A stretch of 64,000 nucleotides of DNA from a virus. The DNA lies in the IMG/VR virus record IMGVR_UViG_3300021356_000007, positions 1-64,000 of that record; one strand, 5' to 3'. Under the pieces are notes generated by a model that saw only the letters and a program-made list of their open reading frames with translations, was not told where the DNA came from and ran no database searches. This document shows, one piece after another, positions 1,019-39,243 of this stretch (position 1 is its first letter; each line of letters opens with the position of its first letter). Position numbers and translations under genes: made by a program.

Positions 1019-3541
1019 TCACAATATAATATCCGCTGCATTGAATAGCAATGCAAATTCGTAAGCCTTTTCTTCTGCACTTCTGCTTACATTGAAGTTA
1101 CTGACTAAACCACTGATGCCGTTCTTTAGATGTCCTTCTTGGCTATTAGCGAAAGTCCTAGAAGCATGAACCGTGTTTATACTGGATAACTTTTCGCTCG
1201 TATTACCTTCTGTAGTAACGAAGAAATTACGCTGCGCTATATGTGAATCTAATACATTTTTACCCTTGGTGACTTCTGTAAGGTAAGGTATCTGTATACC
1301 TCTGATAAAGTCATCAGTGTATTCTTTGGGTATGACTTGGTTCTGAAGGAACTCTACACCCATTCTCAATATCTTACTAGCACCATTGAAGTCAGGGTTA
1401 GTAGCGAAATTGTTACTGTTAGCAAGAATACCTATCATATCCTGAACTTTGTCACCACCACTCTTGACTCGCTTACCACTTCTGCCACCTGAGAAACCTT
1501 GAGTAACAGGCATCTGACCTACGCCTAGAGTGGTGTTGATACTATCTGACAGAGAGCCCAAGGAAGAAGCGTATTGCTGCGTTATAGTGAGTCTACAGTT
1601 ATGGGCGTGAGCAGACTCGCTGATAACAGTGGAGAACGCTTTGTCTATCGTTTTATTACCTGAAGAATTAACTGCTTTACCTAAATCAAGATAAGAAGAT
1701 GTCAATGCTTTAGACAAAAGATAGGTGATATACTCATCAGTCCTAGTGAAACTACTACCGTCTCTAGCAGAACCGTCTTCGTGATTAGGAAATTCAGGAC
1801 CGACTGCCTTCTCAGGGTCAGCGTTTTCGTCAAATGTATCTGCGTTCTTGATAGGTAATACTATGACGGGACTTCCATATCCACTTGATAGACTACCATC
1901 ACCATAACTAATACGATGCATTGCTATGACACTTCCTACAGTATCGGAGATTGTAACTCCTGTGTCTCTTCTAATAGTAATACTGTTACTCGTTACAGCG
2001 GTCACTGTACCAATATGCGGTCTGAATTGACTGTCTATTAGGTAATGCTCGTTTTTAGCAAAAAGCACTTCGAAATTTCTGTTTGACTCTGTAAGTTCAA
2101 ACCACTGCCTAGGGTCACCGTTCAAAGTAAGAGTATTACCTGATACCGATGTTACTTCCAAAGATGTAGACCTAATTTGATTTAAAAATCCATAAGGCTC
2201 TTGTTTACTACCTACCATCTCTTTGTCAAATACTATTCTAACATGTTTAGAATTGTATGAATAATTTCTAAAGTGAGGGTGACTTGAATCACTTAATGAT
2301 ATATCATATTTGTAAGATAGGTAGCCTTCGACCTCTTGTCTTTCAGAAACGCTGAGAGCCCTGTTGTAAACTATGATTTCGTATATGCCACCTTGGAAAT
2401 AATCGCTACCCATCTCGCCTATTTTAAAACTAGCAGAAGTATTTGGCTGGTAATCCACCCCACTGTTTTGAGATGTTTCTACTCCGCCGTTCAGGTACAA
2501 TTCGACTTCGTCAGATTCTGAATCTGAATTAGTGTCCTTCATAACATAAGATGTTAAGAAAGCGTTTGTATTCTTTACAGTGCCGTTGCCACTACCCAAA
2601 TCATCAGTGGTACTGCCTTCTTGCCAGTAAGCAGAAGATTCAAAATTAGTACTCACATCTTTGTATCTGAGCGCATATCCTTTAGCATTCGAGCCTCCAG
2701 TAGTCCCTTCTATAGAACTAAACACTGGTTGGTCGCCAGCAGTTGCATCAGTCTTTGCTACAGCGAACACTGTGAATTCTTCTGAATTAAAGAACGCAGA
2801 ATAGGCTATCTCCATAAAGTCATTAGACCCGTCAAACTGGACATAAGGTTTACCATTTATTCCGTTAGTACGGTATTTGGGTTGCTTGGTAGCATCCAAT
2901 TGCTGAGCCAATCCACCATTACCGCTGCTATCATTCCATGTAGGTAAAACACTACCGTCTGTATTTGTGATTGCATCTGCTTTGAGCCACAGTTGCATAC
3001 CTGAACTGACAGGGACTGTTAACGCCCCACTCTCTTCTATCCAATATGCTACAGGGAAATCAATGTACTTCAAGTTCCAATACTTGAGAATACGATTACC
3101 TAAGTCATTGAGGTCTGTCACCCCGCCTCCTAGAGAGCCACCTATACCGCCTGAGAATGACCCACTGTTAGCGATAGTACCTGTCAATCCTGTGGTCGCA
3201 CCTACTCCGCCTGAAGAGCCTCTTGAGTTGAAGCCTGACGAAATCGGACCACTGGGGTTACCTCCGCTACCTCCAACTGGCTGACCCCATGTAACAATCT
3301 GTTGAGGCTGATAGAAGTCGAGAATAGCAGTAGCCTGTGAAGATTCTTCTTGACCTAGGTCATCAGCAAATACACCCTGTACTTCTACGGTAACAGCAGA
3401 CTGGTTGACATCTATACCCATACGCTTTGCATCCATCAAAGGAATACCAAAGTTAGATTGGACTCTTTCTACTACAATATCAACTTGCGTAGCATCGAGA
3501 GAGATAGTATCACCGTTCTCTTGAACAAGGCGAATAGGCAT
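1019..3541 (-). CDS. Large tail/adhesin-like protein with LamG-type (concanavalin-like) domain
   Basis: About 840 residues. An N-terminal domain is shared with the neighbouring partial gene, followed by a Gly/Ser-rich linker (about 95-150). Then comes a jelly-roll LamG-like domain at about 185-425, seen from MQLWLKAD, a W-DSSG-N motif, YVQFDGSND, FTVFAVAK, ELYLNG and the closing IYEIIVYNRALS. That pattern is typical of laminin-G/pentraxin-like sugar-binding modules in viral adhesins. The C-terminal half is unrecognised. The role in host-surface binding is inferred from domain and position. I chose the ATG at 3541 (ribosome site AAGGAGAGAGA, and MPIRL matches the paralogue's start); an ATG at 3559 is also possible. 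Confidence 0.75.
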   Translation of the reverse strand: MPIRLVQENGDTISLDATQVDIVVERVQSNFGIPLMDAKRMGIDVNQSAVTVEVQGVFADDLGQEESSQATAILDFYQPQQIVTWGQPVGGSGGNPSGPISSGFNSRGSSGGVGATTGLTGTIANSGSFSGGIGGSLGGGVTDLNDLGNRILKYWNLKYIDFPVAYWIEESGALTVPVSSGMQLWLKADAITNTDGSVLPTWNDSSGNGGLAQQLDATKQPKYRTNGINGKPYVQFDGSNDFMEIAYSAFFNSEEFTVFAVAKTDATAGDQPVFSSIEGTTGGSNAKGYALRYKDVSTNFESSAYWQEGSTTDDLGSGNGTVKNTNAFLTSYVMKDTNSDSESDEVELYLNGGVETSQNSGVDYQPNTSASFKIGEMGSDYFQGGIYEIIVYNRALSVSERQEVEGYLSYKYDISLSDSSHPHFRNYSYNSKHVRIVFDKEMVGSKQEPYGFLNQIRSTSLEVTSVSGNTLTLNGDPRQWFELTESNRNFEVLFAKNEHYLIDSQFRPHIGTVTAVTSNSITIRRDTGVTISDTVGSVIAMHRISYGDGSLSSGYGSPVIVLPIKNADTFDENADPEKAVGPEFPNHEDGSARDGSSFTRTDEYITYLLSKALTSSYLDLGKAVNSSGNKTIDKAFSTVISESAHAHNCRLTITQQYASSLGSLSDSINTTLGVGQMPVTQGFSGGRSGKRVKSGGDKVQDMIGILANSNNFATNPDFNGASKILRMGVEFLQNQVIPKEYTDDFIRGIQIPYLTEVTKGKNVLDSHIAQRNFFVTTEGNTSEKLSSINTVHASRTFANSQEGHLKNGISGLVSNFNVSRSAEEKAYEFALLFNAADIIL

Positions 3542-3561
3542 TCTCTCTCCTTCATCCATAC

Positions 3562-3978
3562 TTAGCCACTCCTGTTAAAGCCGCTTTGGGTGAAAGACCC
3601 ACCTATCTTACTTCTCAGTTCTTTAGTAACCATAGTGCTGATTTCTTTAGCGAGTTTCTGCTTGTCTGTTTTGTCAGTTACTCCGCTGACATCTATCTTG
3701 AGATTGACTGTGACATTGTTAGTCTGCCCTCCGCCCCCTCCAGCCAGTTGTCCTTGCTGCACAGGGCTCTCCATCATTTGTTGGAAAGGTTGTGACTTCT
3801 CCATGTTCTTCAAAGAAGCGGTCAAGTCAGTACTGTTGACCTTAGTCATCTCCATAGATTTGCTGAACTTGTCCATCTGCATCTGCAAAGACTTCATGTT
3901 CTCGCCCGCCTCCTTTGCATATTTCTTGAATTTATCCATCGCTTCAACCGAGCGTGGGTCGATTTCGCCGTCAATCAT
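3562..3978 (-). CDS. Short tape-measure-like tail protein
   Basis: 138 residues. The N-terminal half is a charged, Met/Lys-rich helix likely to form a coiled coil. A Gly run is followed by a C-terminal part (NNVTVNLKIDVSGV, then an amphipathic helix and the ending KIGGSF) that resembles the C termini of tape-measure proteins. It lies directly after the tail-chaperone-like genes, where the tape measure belongs, and overlaps the upstream stop as ATGA-type coupling. It is far shorter than a usual tape measure, so it may be only a fragment of that function or a minor tail protein, with the true tape measure elsewhere. Confidence 0.55.
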   Translation of the reverse strand: MIDGEIDPRSVEAMDKFKKYAKEAGENMKSLQMQMDKFSKSMEMTKVNSTDLTASLKNMEKSQPFQQMMESPVQQGQLAGGGGGQTNNVTVNLKIDVSGVTDKTDKQKLAKEISTMVTKELRSKIGGSFTQSGFNRSG

Positions 3979-4247
3979 AGTGAGCCCTCCAATGGCGGGA
4001 CATTGTCATACCCCAAATAAATTGCATCCCTAGGTATCTCTTCTTCTACTTGCATAGCCTGAGCCCAGTAGAGAAGTTGTTTGCCGTCTTCTATTGTCAG
4101 ATTCCTCACCTCTTGTAGATTCATATTGTAGTGCGTCATTAGAAGGTATTCCATCCCTTCTCGTTGGTAGCGAAGTCGGTCTTTGGTAGACCTGTTGTTG
4201 AGGTAGCGTCTGATGTCGCCGACTTCGCCTCCCGAAAAACTAGCCAT
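3975..4247 (-). CDS. Tail assembly chaperone, second frame (GT-type extension candidate)
   Basis: A 90-codon open frame that overlaps the previous gene (4139-4501) by 109 nt and lies in its -1 frame. The internal ATG at 4247 has no ribosome site in front of it. This is the arrangement of the G/GT tail chaperones of tailed phages, where the second frame is reached by programmed -1 slippage. A T5 run (4239-4235, read on the minus strand as AGTTTTTCGG) lies at the start of the overlap, but it is not a textbook slippery heptamer. The protein is helical and acidic at the end, with QYWAQAM-like segments. Position between the tail-tube candidate and the tape-measure-like gene supports the call. Confidence 0.6.
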   Translation of the reverse strand: MASFSGGEVGDIRRYLNNRSTKDRLRYQREGMEYLLMTHYNMNLQEVRNLTIEDGKQLLYWAQAMQVEEEIPRDAIYLGYDNVPPLEGSL

Positions 4248-4501
4248 TCCATAACCTGCGAAGGCTCAGGAAGTAGTTCAGCGAGGCTCTGTCCTTCTTC
4301 AGGCGACAGTGATTCGAAGTCTATAGAAGGTGTGCAGTCGAGCCAGTTGTAGAATGCGTAACGCCAGTAGTTAGAGAAATCCAAAGTGCTGTTAGCGAAC
4401 AGCGGTGCGATTGCTTGAACATCAAAAAATGTCAACCGTTTGGCTGAGACTTGGACAGGTGTTCCGTTTATCTTTATTTTATTCTTCTTCTCCTCCGACA
4501 T
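4139..4501 (-). CDS. Tail assembly chaperone, first frame (G-type candidate)
   Basis: 120 residues, starting MSEEKKNKIKINGTPVQV; an acidic helical middle contains SLSPEEGQSLAELLP. The ATG at 4501 overlaps the end of the upstream gene by 23 nt. It sits downstream of the tail-tube candidate and upstream of the tape-measure-like gene, the fixed place of G-type chaperones, which bind the tape measure during tail assembly. The last 36 codons overlap the second frame described at 3975-4247. No sequence motif by itself proves the family; the gene order and overlapping -1 frame do most of the work. Confidence 0.6.
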   Translation of the reverse strand: MSEEKKNKIKINGTPVQVSAKRLTFFDVQAIAPLFANSTLDFSNYWRYAFYNWLDCTPSIDFESLSPEEGQSLAELLPEPSQVMEWLVFREAKSATSDATSTTGLPKTDFATNEKGWNTF

Positions 4502-4700
4502 ACTTACTCACGCTCTCGTTTGAATCTGCTGAATCATCAGGAGATTCCGCCACCTTTAGGTGAGCGAATGGGTCATCACTGGCTCTACCTGCTTCGGGGT
4601 CGAAGAGGTACTCTCCGCCCTCTTCTTCTTCATCATTGACTATAACTTCGCCATCGAATGGCTGGTATGGGTTGAGGGATTTGATAAATCTTAACGGCAT
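4479..4700 (-). CDS. Small acidic protein of unknown function
   Basis: 73 residues starting MPLRFIKSLNPYQPFDGE, followed by long Glu/Asp runs and ending GGEEE. The ATG at 4700 follows a ribosome site GGGGAGACTT; an in-frame TTG at 4718 is less likely. It lies between the tail-tube candidate and the chaperone genes and overlaps the chaperone start. Not recognised. Confidence 0.6.
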   Translation of the reverse strand: MPLRFIKSLNPYQPFDGEVIVNDEEEEGGEYLFDPEAGRASDDPFAHLKVAESPDDSADSNESVSKYVGGEEE

Positions 4701-4711
4701 AAGTCTCCCCT

Positions 4712-6790
4712 CTAACAATGGTAATCGGCATCAATACTTATCACTTTCACATTCTGAGGCTTTAGTTTCATAGTTGTGAACAGAAGACCTTTGTCGTCAG
4801 GCATAGGTATTGGTAGTTCTGTAATAAAATAATCATCAATTATAACTCTTAGACTGGGAGTAGCCCCGCTGTCACCACTGACGACAGGCTTGGTAAAGTG
4901 AAGCATGATAGTTCCTCCTGTAGAACCAACTGTACCTCCACGCTCTACATGGCTTCTCAGTTCGTGGAATAGGGTAGCATCCTCTAATGCTATAGTCATC
5001 TCCATCTCAAACTCTTCTCTTCCCTCTCTGATAATTGAAGCATTACGAGTACCGCCGTATGGAACTTGCTTGAGGCTGAGATTATTAGCGTTGACTGACT
5101 CAGGTAAGGGGTTACTCTGTATGGTGTGGAACAATTCAACACCAGTTTTCCCTCTGAGTTCGAAAGAACTGACAAAGCCTAAGTTTTGGTCGAAAGCAGA
5201 AATTTCTCCATTGTAATACATGAAAGGTTTCTCAGCACCCTCTGCTATGCCACTGACCTTTCTACCACGCTTTGTGTCGGCTGTATTTTGGAACATACGA
5301 TGAGCAGTATAACGGTCACCTGCATTGCTTGATTCGAGCCTACCCGTATCTGTGTAGCAGGCAAGTGCGTTGAAGATGCACCTGTATTTGACTTCAGCAT
5401 CTACAGTAGAAGACATCTCCCACTCAAGCACCTTACATCCTTTGAATATTCTAGTCAACTGCTTACTGTCATTCGCAGAGCCCGGTGCTACAGTAGATTC
5501 GCCCGTAGCGTTGAAAGAACCTACATCTCTTGTCCTTATACTGTGTTCCATGCTAAAACTCGGTATAGTTTCAGCAGAGAATAGAAGCCTCTTGACATGG
5601 TTGTTGATTGTTCTAGTTGTGTTGATGTCAGGACTACCGTCAGTACTAGCATCATTGTAGTGTCTCAATTCGAGAGTATCGGAAGTGGTGTGAGGGAATT
5701 GCCAGTTATCGTCTATGTATAATCTGAATACATATCTTAATGTTCCTGCGCCTAAATCCTTGATGTACTCTATCGCAGAGATACGGCGACACTCACTAGA
5801 TTCAGCCCACTCAAAGTGAACGGTATCGCTGACAGACGGGAAGTATTTGTCAGTGTTCAGTTCAGGAGTTTTGTATGTTGTAGTAGGGACTCTTGTCGTA
5901 TCTTTCAATAACAGGTAATCTCCTACCGCAGCGTTAGTGCTAGAGCCAAATCTGACACCAGCACTCTCGCTACTGGCTACATCAATGTAACCTTGCCCCG
6001 GCTCTATGTCAGCATGTATTGTCGGTACAGGACTCGTAGCGTGTCCTCTATCTCCGCAGTTGTCTTTACTAACTACTTCTCTACCTAGGCTGTAATATAG
6101 CCACTTAGCACTGTGCATAGGCATCTCAAGAGAGCCACCTACATGATGTACTTTTCCTGTTTGTTGAACTGCAACCTGCCTACCTAGTCCTACTACATGG
6201 TAACTGTGCAGGTCAACTTTGGTATCAGGTAAAGTCATGAAACTCGCTAGTCCTACAAACTGGTCGATGAGGCTAACTTCTTTTGATGAACTAGCCGCTG
6301 TACTCATAGCGAAATTAGTGTCTCCTTGTATGGTAGGTAAGCCCGTAGAGTGTAACATAATGCTATCACCTGTACCGCTGTCAAGTGATGTTGTAGTAGA
6401 AAATGCAGGCACTATCTTGATTTGTGTCGATACATCCCCATCCGTGTTAGCCTCAAGTGTGTGGTCTATTATGGTGTACAGTCTACTTTTCAGTGTGCTA
6501 TTATAGAAATTGCTGAAGTTATTATTCCCTGTAGAAATAGAATGAAAACTCAATTTCTGCCCTATCAGCATACCGAGTGGAACTTTCAGTATAGGTTTAG
6601 TTTGCTCGAAGATACTACTGTTAGTGGCTGCGGTAGTGCCTCTGAACTCTATTGTAGTATACTCACGAGTTGAGTCAGTGGTCTTCGCTGTCCATGTCCT
6701 CGGCTGGTCGTGTTCAATAACTACGCTAGTTTCGTGCCCCATAGAAATCTCTGAGACATCACCCTTGTAATGTGCCCCAAAGCCACTCAT
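4712..6790 (-). CDS. Major tail tube protein candidate
   Basis: 692 residues, beta-rich. The C-terminal third looks like a tail-tube fold: an EMEMTIALED strand and loop, a RSHVERGG turn, GTIMLHFTKP, RVIIDDYFITELPIPMPDD and a final strand near KLKPQNVKV. It is larger than usual tail-tube proteins (often 150-400 residues), so it probably carries extra surface domains in the N-terminal 400 residues. Its place just before the chaperone pair fits a tail tube. The start ATG overlaps the upstream stop and has GGAGGCGATACC in front. Confidence 0.6.
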   Translation of the reverse strand: MSGFGAHYKGDVSEISMGHETSVVIEHDQPRTWTAKTTDSTREYTTIEFRGTTAATNSSIFEQTKPILKVPLGMLIGQKLSFHSISTGNNNFSNFYNSTLKSRLYTIIDHTLEANTDGDVSTQIKIVPAFSTTTSLDSGTGDSIMLHSTGLPTIQGDTNFAMSTAASSSKEVSLIDQFVGLASFMTLPDTKVDLHSYHVVGLGRQVAVQQTGKVHHVGGSLEMPMHSAKWLYYSLGREVVSKDNCGDRGHATSPVPTIHADIEPGQGYIDVASSESAGVRFGSSTNAAVGDYLLLKDTTRVPTTTYKTPELNTDKYFPSVSDTVHFEWAESSECRRISAIEYIKDLGAGTLRYVFRLYIDDNWQFPHTTSDTLELRHYNDASTDGSPDINTTRTINNHVKRLLFSAETIPSFSMEHSIRTRDVGSFNATGESTVAPGSANDSKQLTRIFKGCKVLEWEMSSTVDAEVKYRCIFNALACYTDTGRLESSNAGDRYTAHRMFQNTADTKRGRKVSGIAEGAEKPFMYYNGEISAFDQNLGFVSSFELRGKTGVELFHTIQSNPLPESVNANNLSLKQVPYGGTRNASIIREGREEFEMEMTIALEDATLFHELRSHVERGGTVGSTGGTIMLHFTKPVVSGDSGATPSLRVIIDDYFITELPIPMPDDKGLLFTTMKLKPQNVKVISIDADYHC

Positions 6791-19976: not shown

Positions 19977-21722
19977 CTAAGCCCCTCTTGGATTACGGGC
20001 GTTAATTATACCTTGACTTGCTTGTTCCAAACCTGTGGGTTGCATACCCCTTTGTTGAACGCTCGACATAGGACTACCTGAGCCCATGCTAGTTCTGTTC
20101 TGTGGGCTCGCAGGACCACGGTCTCTTAGCCCCATACCTTCTCCTCCGGGGTTAGCCATACCGGGTACTTGAGCCTGCCTTCCCATCTGTGCTGCCAATT
20201 GCGGAGGGATGTTTCTACTCGGTAGTGCGCCCGGAGTACCCATACCTCCACCCATTCTCATACCTCCCATAGGTTGAGGTTGTTGTCCTTGCATCGCTGC
20301 CTCAGCAGGGTCAGGTTGCTTGTAGATGAATCTGATGTCTCGGTTAGCATCTTCTTGTAGTGTAGGTTTGTAGCCCATCATCATCATTCTTTGAGCGATG
20401 TTGACTTCCATCTCGTCTCTTCTCAGTCTAGTGACTTCGTCTTCCTCTTCATTTGGATATAGTGTCAACTTCCAATCAGTGACATCCATCTGTTCCATCA
20501 TCCTTGGGAATAGATGCTCTGTGTATACTTTGTGACCGAACTCTACTGCACGATTAGTGACGAGTATCTGCATACCTTCGTTGTTTAAACCGCCTGACTT
20601 ACCTGTGTCCATCATGAACACATTAGATACTCCGTAGAACGCAGCAATACGCTGACGCATCTCATCACGAGCAGGTATGTACTGCATTTCTTCAAGACTG
20701 TCCATCAGTTTGACCCAATTGACACCACCCTTACCGTTACCTTCAGTAGCAATCTTAGGGATGTAATGAGGGTCACGCTCAAGTTTTTCATCAGTGGCTT
20801 TCCAAAATGCCTTCATTGATTCAAGATTCTCTGTACTAATGCTCAAAATACCTCTTGGTATTCTGCGCTTTGAATAAGCAGTGTACATGTAGTTGTCCAT
20901 CGCTGTCAAAGTCATAGCCTGTCTCCAAAGTGTAGATACAGGGCTTCGACCATACAACTTACTAGGGTTGTATTTACTCACATGTATGACTTCACCCTTG
21001 AGGTAATACTGAGTCTTACCACTACCGGCAGTATTGACATGGTGTACATCTTCCATCTCAGTCCCACATATAGAGCATTTCTTTTCTTCTTCAGAGAAAG
21101 ATTTGACTTCGCTTCTGTGAATAGGGCAAACTCTGAATCTGCCTCCTCTTACACCACGCTTGTCAGCAATAATACGCATGAATATAGGGTCGCCTCTAAC
21201 AATTTCCTTGATACGATAGAAAGCCATTTCATTAGTTTCAGGGTCAATGAAGTATTCTTTGATGAGTATAAGGAATGCGTCATCGGTGATATTGAGGTCA
21301 TATTCTATCTCCCTTAGTACATCCATGAAGGTTTGTTCCATAGAGTTTCTCTGCTCTATTAGCCACCTTGGATATACTAATTGGTCGGGATTAGGACTGA
21401 CTAATTCAGTACTACCGCACTCTTTACATTCATCTACATCGTGCTGGAACTCTTTGTCACAGGCTGTACACTTCTTGTGAAACTTCTTCTCCCAATAGTA
21501 GCCTCTTCTGAATATCTCTTGTTGCAAAGTACTCAACACAGTTCTTAGAATAAGATTTTCATTAGCCACTGCATAAAGAGCAGGGATAGTAATACCTTGG
21601 ACAAGTACAGGCTCTTGTATACCAGTAGTCCATAAAGGCATTTGGGGCTCAGGCGTTGTCCTTCTACGAAAAGGACTACCCAAAGTTTCTAAGAATCTAC
21701 CTACTCTACCTTTCTCTGCCAT
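19977..21722 (-). CDS. Portal protein with two zinc-binding inserts
   Basis: About 581 residues. The portal call rests on position after the terminase, the length, and typical segments: an N-terminal wing, HVSKYNPSKLYGRSPVSTLW at the domain entry, the helical VSNVFMMDTGKSGGLNNEGM region and the long C-terminal helices. A Met/Pro/Gly/Gln-rich tail follows. Two inserts are unusual: CTAC...CKEC near 82-100 and CPIH...CSIC near 200-225, both zinc-ribbon like. The ATG at 21722 shares its A with the upstream TGA and has a GGAGG site. The portal is the DNA gate of the head. Confidence 0.85.
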   Translation of the reverse strand: MAEKGRVGRFLETLGSPFRRRTTPEPQMPLWTTGIQEPVLVQGITIPALYAVANENLILRTVLSTLQQEIFRRGYYWEKKFHKKCTACDKEFQHDVDECKECGSTELVSPNPDQLVYPRWLIEQRNSMEQTFMDVLREIEYDLNITDDAFLILIKEYFIDPETNEMAFYRIKEIVRGDPIFMRIIADKRGVRGGRFRVCPIHRSEVKSFSEEEKKCSICGTEMEDVHHVNTAGSGKTQYYLKGEVIHVSKYNPSKLYGRSPVSTLWRQAMTLTAMDNYMYTAYSKRRIPRGILSISTENLESMKAFWKATDEKLERDPHYIPKIATEGNGKGGVNWVKLMDSLEEMQYIPARDEMRQRIAAFYGVSNVFMMDTGKSGGLNNEGMQILVTNRAVEFGHKVYTEHLFPRMMEQMDVTDWKLTLYPNEEEDEVTRLRRDEMEVNIAQRMMMMGYKPTLQEDANRDIRFIYKQPDPAEAAMQGQQPQPMGGMRMGGGMGTPGALPSRNIPPQLAAQMGRQAQVPGMANPGGEGMGLRDRGPASPQNRTSMGSGSPMSSVQQRGMQPTGLEQASQGIINARNPRGA

Positions 21723-23023
21723 CACAATGCCTCCGCCCAACTCATGACTGTATCACGGTCTACTCCCCATTCTCGCAGAGACTCCTCACCTTTAGATGTT
21801 CCATCCCTGTTAGAGAATTGAACAAATCTCTTGAGTTGAGTTTTCCTGACTGGGTCTTTCTCTCCAATATATGCAAGTACAGCCTTTGCCTGCATATCTT
21901 TCATCCTTAGATGTGGGGTAAGATTACTGAGTAATTTACTCAAATCATCCTTGGCATAGAAACTAACACGATGTTGACTCCTCTGATTATCAGAGTACAC
22001 TTTTTGGTCGAGTTGCAAAACGCCCGCACCGATGTGTTTGTGTAATTCTTCACAGTGCATTCTGCCCCTTTCTCCTGTAGCGATGAATCCCGCCCTTGGC
22101 TCTCCACGCTCGGTGATGGTAATATAACCATCAGCATCTAAGAAGCCTGCCGCATAAGCCCAATTATCTTTGATTATCAAACCTTCTCGGTTGATACACA
22201 TGTATTCACCTCTTCTGTGTGACTTGATTATGTTAAGTTCTTCACCGTACATATTCAGTAACTTAGCCAATTTAGCAGAACTTACATTGGAGACTCCCTT
22301 CTCTATCAAGTTAGATGCGATTGCCTTAGATGTCATTGCACCTTTTTCTTCCATCTCCGATTTAGATAGTGTCAATAGTTTCTGTTGCTCTTTGTTGAGG
22401 TTATCGAATTGATGCAATGCATTCTTCCAAATCTTACGAGCGTCTTGCTTCTGTTGCATAGAACTAACCCAAGAGTTCTTTTCTTCTTCTCCCCACACAT
22501 CTTGGAACTCATCTAATTTGGCGAGTATATCTTCTGCATTATTCCAAAGATGACAGGCTCTCATCAGAGTAGTCTTCCTAGTATTACCAAAAAGTCTCAA
22601 TGCTCTCAGGTCTTTGTTAGATAGTCCCATCTTTCTCATAGCATCTTGGTAAGGCTCGGACCAATCTAACTTAGATAGTGTAGCCTCTACTTCCAAACTC
22701 TTCAACGCTCTGACACTGTGAATAATACTGTCAATCTCTTCTTTGTCTTCTTTGAATACCCTGCGGGCTTTTCTAAGGTCCTTGATGATACTGTTAGCAC
22801 TTTTACCTAACTTATCTTCGAACCAACCTTCACCAGTAGGCGAGAACGGTGCATATTGCGGTTTTCTTATTTCTTCAGTGACGAAAGAATTTGATGCTAT
22901 TGACTTAGCAATCACTTCATCAACATTAGGATGGGACAAAAGACTTGACGCAATAGTACTCAATGTGTCGTCTCCCATATCAATCGAATAATTGGAGTCA
23001 CCTACAGACAAACTAGACCACAT
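21722..23023 (-). CDS. Virion-block protein fused to a LAGLIDADG homing-endonuclease domain
   Basis: 433 residues. Residues 1-270 are helical and unrecognised. The C-terminal part holds one LAGLIDADG helix (YAAGFLDADGYITI, about 289-302), followed by the expected beta strands and a second helical half without a clear second motif, so it would act as a dimer if active. No intein splice residues are seen, and the terminase before it and portal after it are intact. It is therefore a fusion and not an intein. Site GGGTGATAAT before the ATG. It may spread this locus, or the domain may have been recruited for DNA binding. Confidence 0.7.
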   Translation of the reverse strand: MWSSLSVGDSNYSIDMGDDTLSTIASSLLSHPNVDEVIAKSIASNSFVTEEIRKPQYAPFSPTGEGWFEDKLGKSANSIIKDLRKARRVFKEDKEEIDSIIHSVRALKSLEVEATLSKLDWSEPYQDAMRKMGLSNKDLRALRLFGNTRKTTLMRACHLWNNAEDILAKLDEFQDVWGEEEKNSWVSSMQQKQDARKIWKNALHQFDNLNKEQQKLLTLSKSEMEEKGAMTSKAIASNLIEKGVSNVSSAKLAKLLNMYGEELNIIKSHRRGEYMCINREGLIIKDNWAYAAGFLDADGYITITERGEPRAGFIATGERGRMHCEELHKHIGAGVLQLDQKVYSDNQRSQHRVSFYAKDDLSKLLSNLTPHLRMKDMQAKAVLAYIGEKDPVRKTQLKRFVQFSNRDGTSKGEESLREWGVDRDTVMSWAEAL

Positions 23024-37135: not shown

Positions 37136-38389
37136 TCAGGCTGACCTATCAATTTCACCCTGAACCTTAGAACCATCTTGGCGACCCATGTTCATTGCTG
37201 CCTGCATAAGTTGCTGTCTAGCAAATTGTTGTGCCTCCGGGCTAGATGGGTCAGCGAATGCTCTCATAGTTGGTGTATTTCTTAAGCCCGGACTTAGCAT
37301 TATTTCTTTTTCTTCAGCACTCATAGGTTGCCTTTGCATGTCATCCATTGCTTGTCTCCTTGCGCCAGTCATCCTTGGCTCGAATAATTTACGAGAAACT
37401 CTCTCAGGTTTGTCCTCTTCGACAGGTGCTTCTTGTATTTTAGAACCGCCCGGTGTCATCATACCTTCGAGCATTGCTCGGATTCTATCTTCTTGGCTCA
37501 TTTCTTGAGGTGCTTCTTCTTGTTCAGGTTGAATGAATCTAGTTGTCATACCGGATAGAGGGTCTTTTCCAAAACCTCCAGTCTTCATACCTTCGACATT
37601 GCTAAGTTTTGAAGCAGACCTTTGACGAGCAAATGGATTTCTTTGGACCCTGCCAGTCTTATCACTGACTACTGGCTGATTGAATTGGTCTGTTTGCATA
37701 CCAAGGTTCAGTAAATTTTGACCTGACCTAGCACCACCTCTAACATCGAACCTACCGCCTCTGCTACCTGAAACCATACGGTCAGCAGCAGATGTCATAC
37801 CTTCTCTACCTCTTGCTCTTTCAAGCGGAGTAGTGAAACTTTGTTCAGGGTCTACATCCATCATAGGGATAGTCTGTGTAGGGTGTCTCACTTCTAGTTG
37901 CCCTGTGTTTGGGTTCAAAGCCATACTCGTACCCATTTGGTCTACCACATCTTCTCTTAGAGGACTGATGTCTCTCTCGATAGCAGCGACACTTTGAGGG
38001 ATAGGGTCACCCCTGCCTCCTCCAAGGTTACCTAGAGGAACTGGAACGCTCGCTGTCATTTCACCGGGTCTTTCTACATCACGCTGTACTGCGTCACCTC
38101 TACCACTAAAGGTATCAGTCATCCCCTCTAGTTCAGCCCTTTGCTCAGGAGTAAGCATCTCCAAATCTTTACCTCTTAGTCTGTTGAGCATACCGCCCCT
38201 CATTGTCGCTACTGGGTTCAAAACTCTTGTAGCGATACCTTGACGATTATCTAAAGCACTGTCGCCCATGTATTCATCAATGTATTCGTTAGACGGCATA
38301 CCTGCAATAGCAGGGTGAACTGTACCGTATATACCCTGTGCGCCGGGTTGTGCTTTCAATGTAGTCCAAGCGTTTTCGAGTGCGCTCAT
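37136..38389 (-). CDS. Disordered virion-block protein with N-terminal AWTTLK tag
   Basis: 417 residues. Starts MSALENAWTTLKAQPG. The rest is rich in Arg, Met, Gln, Gly and Pro, with a repetitive look (ERPGEMTASVPVPLG, RERxSR-type segments), so probably disordered. Its ATG overlaps the stop of the HMG-CoA lyase gene as ATGA, so the two are co-translated. No family recognised; an internal head protein is likely from composition and place. Confidence 0.6.
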   Translation of the reverse strand: MSALENAWTTLKAQPGAQGIYGTVHPAIAGMPSNEYIDEYMGDSALDNRQGIATRVLNPVATMRGGMLNRLRGKDLEMLTPEQRAELEGMTDTFSGRGDAVQRDVERPGEMTASVPVPLGNLGGGRGDPIPQSVAAIERDISPLREDVVDQMGTSMALNPNTGQLEVRHPTQTIPMMDVDPEQSFTTPLERARGREGMTSAADRMVSGSRGGRFDVRGGARSGQNLLNLGMQTDQFNQPVVSDKTGRVQRNPFARQRSASKLSNVEGMKTGGFGKDPLSGMTTRFIQPEQEEAPQEMSQEDRIRAMLEGMMTPGGSKIQEAPVEEDKPERVSRKLFEPRMTGARRQAMDDMQRQPMSAEEKEIMLSPGLRNTPTMRAFADPSSPEAQQFARQQLMQAAMNMGRQDGSKVQGEIDRSA

Positions 38390-39243
38390 GAGGTGGGGAT
38401 AGCGAGACCACTAAAAAAAGTGTTGATTGATTTTGCAAAGTCAGTTGCTTTCCCCAGCATCTTCTCGTCTACCCCTGTTTCAAAGCCCCAAGCGTGTAGA
38501 TGGCTGACAAGAAGGGCAGTATCAAGATTAGCCCCGCTGCCCTCTGCGAAGGGACAACCACCCAATCCCCCGATGCTAGAATCAAATTGCCTGATACCGG
38601 AAAATAAGCCAGCCCTAACAAGCCTGATTGCCTGTTCTTCTGAGCCTTTATGGTGCAAATGCAGAGCCGGAGTTAGGTCTTCTTCGTATACAATAGAAGC
38701 CCAGTCCTTTACCTCTTGCTCAGTCGCAGCACCAACCGTATCGCTGAGAACTACAGTAGAGCCTAGCATCTTCGCATCTCTGATGCAAGACTTGATTTCT
38801 GACTCAGAAAAACTACCGCTATATGGACTACCAAACGCCATGCTTATGTATACCCTAACTAAATCCTTGGGGTAAGCGTTGAGCATCGTCTTGTACATCA
38901 GAACAATTTCGCTTCGAGTCTTACCCATGTTCTTCAGGTTGAATGTCTCACAAGGGCTGAACACGATGTTGATGTAGTCCATACCTAAATCCATAGCCCT
39001 GTCAAAGCCCCTCTGATTCATGACAAGCCCAGCACCTATGCCAGTCCAAACTTCCTCTGCATCAGCCATCTGCGGCAAGATTTTCGGGTGAGCGAAACTG
39101 ACTTCCTCAATCTCAGTCAGCCCGCTGTCATACAGAAGCCCTATGAGTTTCTGTTTGTCAGAGGTAGGGACAAAGTGCTTGATGTATTGCAACCCATCTC
39201 TAGGACCAACTTCGTAGACTGTGATTTTCATAAGACCGTTCAT
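38386..39243 (-). CDS. HMG-CoA lyase homologue
   Basis: 285 residues, a full-length DRE-TIM metallolyase. Signatures: EVGPRDGLQ (Arg15, Asp16), EEVSFAHPKILPQMAD, FGSPYSGSFSES, DTVGAATEQEV, the metal-binding LHLHHKG (H195, H197) and the HMG-CoA-lyase loop GGLGGCPFA with C230, followed by N239. All catalytic and metal residues I can name are in place. The family splits 3-hydroxy-3-methylglutaryl-CoA into acetyl-CoA and acetoacetate. It is the first gene of the leftward block, next to the putative origin. In archaea HMG-CoA feeds mevalonate and membrane lipids, so a viral copy could change lipid supply. Start at 39243 or an ATG at 39231. Confidence 0.88.
   Translation of the reverse strand: MNGLMKITVYEVGPRDGLQYIKHFVPTSDKQKLIGLLYDSGLTEIEEVSFAHPKILPQMADAEEVWTGIGAGLVMNQRGFDRAMDLGMDYINIVFSPCETFNLKNMGKTRSEIVLMYKTMLNAYPKDLVRVYISMAFGSPYSGSFSESEIKSCIRDAKMLGSTVVLSDTVGAATEQEVKDWASIVYEEDLTPALHLHHKGSEEQAIRLVRAGLFSGIRQFDSSIGGLGGCPFAEGSGANLDTALLVSHLHAWGFETGVDEKMLGKATDFAKSINTFFSGLAIPTS

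What the first reader, a model, noticed from the sequence alone, without database searches (positions are those of the whole stretch)
3975..4501. Probable programmed -1 frameshift in the tail assembly chaperone
Seen: the second frame overlaps the first by 109 nt, lies exactly in its -1 frame, and its internal ATG has no ribosome site; a T5 run sits at the start of the overlap. Known: G and GT chaperones of tailed phages are made this way, and the genes lie between tail tube and tape measure. Inference: the same recoding happens here, possibly in an archaeal cell, with a non-standard slippery site.
Basis: partly seen in the sequence, partly recalled or inferred. Interest (0 to 1): 0.62.

Follow-up and report, generated by a model that had tools for sequence, protein, structure and literature searches.

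The report
Tail-chaperone ribosomal frameshift in archaeal virus
A virus of marine archaea almost certainly makes the two forms of its tail-assembly helper protein by having ribosomes slip back one base at a short run of U's just before a conserved RNA hairpin: a known phage trick, here with an unusual slip site and unusually good evolutionary evidence.

Summary
Confirmed and sharpened. ORF1 (4501-4139, minus strand, 120 aa) and ORF2 (open 4265-3975, in the -1 frame of ORF1) are as described. About 60 relatives from IMG/VR keep the second frame in -1. In 46 distinct relatives plus the window, coding constraint switches from ORF1's frame to ORF2's frame exactly at 0-frame codons NNU_UUU (GUU_UUU_CGG here). 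It is conserved in all 47 sequences, including compensatory changes. The codon where ORF2 could start has changed at least 18 times, and CUG appears in six of 47 rows (six changes on the tree), so internal initiation is not what is conserved. Gene order matches HVTV-1, an archaeal virus annotated with the same recoding. The virus looks like a magrovirus (Poseidoniales virus). What is new: the P-site half of the canonical heptamer is degraded, the A-site holds a very rare CGG codon, and a strong stem is kept. Distant relatives have canonical G_GGU_UUU or A_AAU_UUU. I read it as -1 frameshifting giving a 120-aa G and a 175-aa G-T fusion (about 0.93), probably by one-tRNA slippage of tRNA-Phe (about 0.5). 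No protein evidence exists.

The parts
4139..4501 (-). ORF1, G-like tail assembly chaperone, 120 aa (0 frame)
   Evidence: fold search: HHTV-2 tail assembly chaperone prob 0.95, E 0.11, and several other chaperones among weak hits
3975..4265 (-). ORF2 open frame (-1), T-like domain; read in a fusion from Ser at 4235
   Evidence: similar to the HVTV-1 gp130 T domain
4235..4240 (-). slip site GTT_TTT (0-frame codons), T5 run 4239-4235
   Evidence: NNT TTT invariant in 47/47; Val GTT 32/32 and Leu CTT 9/9
4232..4234 (-). A-site codon CGG, rarest Arg codon in this virus's structural genes
   Evidence: 4 of 514 Arg codons; CGG at this place in 43/47
4229..4234 (-). 6-nt spacer CGGGAG between slip site and stem
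4219..4228 (-). stimulatory stem, 5' arm GCGAAGTCGG
   Evidence: inverted repeat; covariation
4170..4179 (-). stimulatory stem, 3' arm CCGACTTCGC (39-nt loop 4180-4218)
4245..4247 (-). ATG of ORF2, position not conserved as a start (ATG/GTG/TTG/CTG in relatives)
4712..6790 (-). tail tube homologue, 692 aa
   Evidence: two colinear matches to HVTV-1 gp128, E 7e-6 and 6e-5; the syntenic HCTV-5 gene is annotated tail tube
3562..3978 (-). 138-aa protein in tape-measure position
   Evidence: C-terminal similarity to HVTV-1 tape measure gp131, E 0.003; 136-163 aa throughout the magrovirus-type relatives

Best explanation
ORF1/ORF2 encode a lambda G/GT-type pair of tail assembly chaperones in a magrovirus-type archaeal virus. 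Most ribosomes translate ORF1 to its stop (G, 120 aa). A minority slip back one base at UUU (4237-4235), helped by the stem-loop that begins 7 nt downstream, and continue with Ser (UCG) into ORF2, making a 175-aa fusion (89 + 86 residues, junction ...EWLVF-SGGEV...). Shown by sequence evolution: the site of the frame switch, its direction, the conserved stem, absence of a conserved start. Inferred: that slippage really occurs, its rate, that G coats the tape measure and T recruits the tail tube as in lambda, and that the slip is mostly by the P-site tRNA-Phe alone while the rare CGG waits in the A site.
For: Relatives: 22, 43, 55, 59 and 80 loci in successive, overlapping scans; ORF2 is always in -1, no indel to +110. 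Codon-position entropy: upstream of the site 0-frame position 3 is most variable (1.36 vs 0.37 at position 2); inside the 97-nt overlap -1-frame position 3 is most variable (0.67 vs 0.36-0.41). Base before TTT is T in all 41 Val/Leu codons where any base would do. Stem: 95.3% of cells paired, 3 pairs with double changes, covariation score reached by 0/500 shuffles, slid versions 20-43% paired; MFE z -3.4. In 24 relatives where ORF1 ends early, 3'-arm synonymous codons are more fixed (0.84 vs 0.61; Leu CTT 1.00); 3'-arm pairing probability about 0.0085 per sequence under random synonymous codons for most of them. Start position: at least 18 codon changes; CTG by 6 changes. Stops in -1 just upstream, at codons -8 or -7, in about 20 of 47. 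Synteny with HVTV-1 gp127-gp131.
Against: No protein or reporter evidence. The heptamer is not canonical in the window's clade. Pfam and PHROGs give no significant chaperone match. Fold matches are weak. CGG is partly dictated by dual coding. A subclade carries GAGGTGAT upstream, which could serve initiation as well as slippage.
Confidence: 0.93

Rival explanations
1. ORF2 is translated separately by internal initiation at the ATG/GTG nine bases before the slip site.
For: ATG at 4247 with AGGT 6 nt upstream; some relatives have GAGGTGAT.
Against: The codon is NTG only because Trp TGG is invariant in ORF1; N is A, G, T or C (18/13/10/6 of 47), at least 18 changes on the tree, CTG by six changes; several relatives lack any Shine-Dalgarno match. 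ORF2's codons between this start and the slip site are not conserved while those after it are. It does not explain the invariant T or the stem.
Confidence: 0.04
2. Termination-reinitiation: ribosomes finish ORF1 and restart in ORF2 at TAATG (4139-4141).
For: In the window the ORF1 stop overlaps an in-frame ATG (LLMTHY) of ORF2.
Against: ORF1's stop lies at four different distances (97, 52, 28, 25 nt) in relatives and several early stops have no overlapping start; conserved ORF2 residues upstream of that ATG would be lost.
Confidence: 0.01
3. Transcriptional slippage on the T-run gives mRNAs with an inserted or missing base.
For: T5 run.
Against: Runs of 4 T's suffice in L116-L125 and in the G_GGT_TTT relatives; slippage by polymerases normally needs longer runs (own knowledge); the stem position fits ribosomes.
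Confidence: 0.02
4. A +1 shift at UUU_CGG, the motif known from influenza PA-X and proposed for HF1 haloviruses.
For: UUU_CGG is conserved in 43/47; UUU_CGN is a known +1 site (PMC7230728).
Against: The +1 frame is not conserved: 5-81 aa open, often shorter than 30 aa. ORF2 is in -1 in every relative. A +2 shift would give the same frame but is rare.
Confidence: 0.01

Closest known systems
Phage lambda G / GT tail assembly chaperone frameshift
   Same: Overlapping ORFs between tail tube and tape-measure positions; -1 shift; T domain has no conserved start of its own (PMC5009743 for lambda)
   Different: Lambda uses G_GGA_AAG; here UUU preceded by non-re-pairing GUU/CUU, followed by rare CGG and a covarying stem; virus of archaea
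HVTV-1 gp129/gp130 and HCTV-1, -2, -5 (Druskaviridae)
   Same: Archaeal virus, same gene order, similar T domain and tail tube; -1 frameshift annotated or predicted (PMC5009743)
   [quoted passage not shown] GGGAAAG in HVTV-1 read here
Bacteriophage T7 gene 10 (G_GU first half)
   Same: P-site codon GUU re-pairs poorly after the shift (PMC5009743 gives X_XX as G_GU)
   Different: Capsid gene, bacterial ribosomes, a far-downstream stimulator instead of a stem 7 nt away
HF1-group halovirus chaperones, TTT-CGC (PMC7230728)
   Different: +1 shift proposed there; -1 here
Saccharolobus solfataricus alpha-L-fucosidase -1 frameshift (PMC8211752)
   Same: -1 shift on archaeal ribosomes
   Different: Cellular enzyme gene; no tail role

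Membership tests
-1 frameshifted tail assembly chaperones (lambda G/GT type) | Two overlapping ORFs between tail tube and tape measure genes | tested here: met
   tube homologue; downstream 138-aa ORF weakly like HVTV-1 tape measure
-1 frameshifted tail assembly chaperones (lambda G/GT type) | Second ORF in the -1 frame without its own conserved start | tested here: met
-1 frameshifted tail assembly chaperones (lambda G/GT type) | Canonical X_XXY_YYZ heptamer (typical, not strictly required: T7 gene 10 departs from it, PMC5009743) | tested here: not met
   A_GTT_TTT in the window; canonical in L119-L125 and L251-L271
-1 frameshifted tail assembly chaperones (lambda G/GT type) | Downstream RNA structure 5-9 nt from the site (general for -1 frameshifting) | tested here: met
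   6-nt spacer, covarying stem
-1 frameshifted tail assembly chaperones (lambda G/GT type) | Homology of the G and T proteins to known chaperones | tested here: inconclusive
   T domain E 3e-4 / 5.5e-5 to HVTV-1; G E 0.005; fold hit HHTV-2 TAC prob 0.95, E 0.11
-1 frameshifted tail assembly chaperones (lambda G/GT type) | Both G and the G-T fusion are made in a fixed ratio and needed for tails | not testable with these tools
   needs proteomics or genetics
Order Magrovirales (viruses of Poseidoniales) | 90-100 kb genome, PolB replisome, chaperonin, HVTV-like capsid protein, two opposed gene clusters | tested here: met
   91.9-kb record, PolB, RFC, PCNA, thermosome ORFs recognised by eye, MCP 35% to HVTV-1; no tree was made
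UUU_CGN +1 frameshift sites | downstream ORF in +1 | tested here: not met

The most novel reading that the evidence does not exclude
In this archaeal virus clade the canonical two-tRNA heptamer (G_GGU_UUU or A_AAU_UUU in relatives) has decayed to NNU_UUU_CGG, and recoding now relies on single-tRNA (P-site Phe) slippage with a very rare CGG codon in the A site plus a strong covarying stem: a naturally conserved 'hungry-codon' type -1 frameshift on archaeal ribosomes.
Probability: 0.45. Interest if true: 0.65.

Novelty: new variant of a known kind. Interest (0 to 1): 0.52.

Why it matters
A 2021 review counted one demonstrated cellular -1 frameshift in archaea (PMC8211752); viral cases rest mainly on slippery sequences. 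Here dozens of related viruses give comparative evidence, including a covarying stimulatory stem and a series from canonical to degenerate slip sites, so the slippage rules of archaeal ribosomes become testable with one short cassette. It also corrects annotation of an abundant marine virus group, whose ORF2 would otherwise be called as a separate gene.

Tried and rejected
Pseudoknot: the best loop-downstream helix (columns 64-69 with 114-119) is 82.6% paired but broken in the window itself and in L119-L125, so not claimed. Rfam: nothing relevant. Virus-encoded tRNAs in the window: none found. Relatives in 84,980 cellular genomes: none found in one scan. Pfam, PHROGs and PDB gave no significant chaperone match. 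ORF2's model (pLDDT 67) found no fold match. tblastn of ORF1 or ORF2 against phage records: no real hit. The stem is not evident in the most distant relatives with canonical sites (fold z +0.4 to -2.0). The Poseidoniales virus reference ON649702 is not in the collection.

Full report
What is there. The window is the first 64 kb of a 91,888-base IMG/VR virus record. On the minus strand ORF1 runs 4501-4139 (120 aa) and ORF2 from an ATG at 4247 to 3975; ORF2's frame is open from 4265 and is exactly -1 to ORF1. The T5 run is at 4239-4235 in GTT TTT CGG (0-frame codons). One detail is not: a weak AGGT lies 6 nt before the ATG.

Relatives. ORF1 and ORF2 probes and their alignments brought 22, 43, 55, 59 and 80 overlapping sets of viral loci. 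In all 55 ORF2-anchored loci the second frame is -1 to the first and there is no insertion or deletion from the slip site to +110. They reduce to 46 distinct sequences; with the window 47 were aligned.

The frame switch. By codon position, entropy upstream of the site is highest at 0-frame position 3 (1.36; position 2: 0.37) and downstream, while ORF1 is still open, highest at -1-frame position 3 (0.67; others 0.36-0.41; loop only 1.12 against 0.65 and 0.72). So selection changes frame at the site, not at ORF1's stop. -1-frame residues before the site vary freely (S, G, T, A, Q, K, R just before it) and stops occur there at codons -8 and -7; after it F-S-x-x-E-V is near invariant. The third base of the 0-frame codon before TTT is T in 32/32 Val and 9/9 Leu codons, where any base would serve the protein.

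The stem. GCGAAGTCGG (4228-4219) pairs with CCGACTTCGC (4179-4170) across 39 nt, six bases after the slip codon; the window folds at z = -3.4. In the 47-row alignment 95.3% of cells pair; pairs 41-99 (GC, CG, AU), 45-95 (AU to GC) and 49-91 (GC, AU) have changes on both sides; no shuffle of 500 reaches the covariation score, and slid versions pair 20-43%. On a tree built without the site or stem these pairs change 6, 1 and 5 times. In 24 relatives ORF1 ends 25-52 nt after the site, so the 3' arm codes only for ORF2; there synonymous codons in the arm agree in 0.84 of comparisons against 0.61 further on, and Leu is always CTT. No pseudoknot is supported.

Alternatives. The ORF2 start is NTG because ORF1's Trp TGG is invariant; it is ATG 18, GTG 13, TTG 10, CTG 6, changed at least 18 times, CTG by six changes. 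Shine-Dalgarno matches range from none to 8 nt. ORF1's stop moves (97, 52, 28, 25 nt). Four T's suffice in several relatives. Internal initiation, reinitiation and polymerase slippage therefore fit poorly.

How it works. The nearest relatives of the capsid protein are HVTV-1 and other Druskaviridae (35%). Synteny supports the tail functions: 6787-7260 matches HVTV-1 gp127 (E 2e-5), 4712-6790 the tail tube gp128 (E 7e-6), ORF2 the T part of gp130 (E 3e-4; profile 5.5e-5), and 3562-3978 the end of the tape measure gp131 (E 0.003). HVTV-1 is annotated with a joined (frameshifted) chaperone. By analogy with lambda (PMC5009743) the short product would coat the tape measure and the fusion would bring in the tube protein; this step is inferred.

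The slip itself. Re-pairing of the Phe tRNA from UUU to UUU is perfect; re-pairing of Val, Leu or Ser in the codon before is poor. CGG follows in 43/47; it is 4 of 514 Arg codons in the window's structural genes and 2.4% over the loci. The relatives with canonical heptamers (A_AAT_TTT in L119-L125, G_GGT_TTT in L251-L271) do not have CGG, and the G_GGT_TTT group has no clear stem. This suggests a move from two-tRNA to one-tRNA slippage, but rests on few lineages, and dual coding partly dictates CGG. That one-tRNA slippage occurs when the A-site tRNA is limiting is described in PMC8211752.

Known or new. -1 frameshifted chaperones are known in phages and proposed in HVTV-1, HCTV-1, -2, -5 (PMC5009743) and Hardycor1 (PMC7911831). 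A magrovirus survey (PMC10160649) does not mention frameshifting; the Aoguangviridae profile (PMC10768690) only labels a tail assembly chaperone in its genome map; two key papers were not held, so an earlier mention cannot be excluded. I rate it a new variant of a known kind.

Limits. All evidence is comparative sequence analysis. The tree is a quick one with open forks. The host is inferred from gene content.

Noticed in passing
window 3562-3978 (-): The protein in tape-measure position is only 136-163 aa throughout the magrovirus-type relatives, against 480 aa in HVTV-1; if it is the tape measure, the tail would be very short (about 20 nm).
   Followed up: partly
window 1019-3559 (-): 846-aa tail-region protein with a concanavalin-like lectin (Laminin_G_3) domain, a candidate receptor-binding or decoration function.
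   Followed up: no
window 21722-23023 (-): 433-aa ORF overlapping the portal ORF start, with a C-terminal stretch (WAYAAGFLDADGYITI) that looks by eye like a LAGLIDADG homing endonuclease.
   Followed up: no
window 4479-4718 (-): 79-aa acidic ORF between tail tube and ORF1, overlapping the start of ORF1 by 23 nt; no counterpart in HVTV-1 and no family match.
   Followed up: no
window 38386-39243 (-): ORF that looks by eye like HMG-CoA lyase, an auxiliary gene also listed for Aoguangviridae.
   Followed up: no
L091, L094, L097, L098, L100, L104, L106 upstream of slip site: A subclade carries an 8-nt Shine-Dalgarno-like GAGGTGAT about 15 nt before the slip codon, which might act as a dnaX-like frameshift stimulator.
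   Followed up: partly
L251-L271: A distant group of viral contigs with canonical G_GGT_TTT sites and mostly 253-311-aa genes in tape-measure position; their hosts are unknown.
   Followed up: partly
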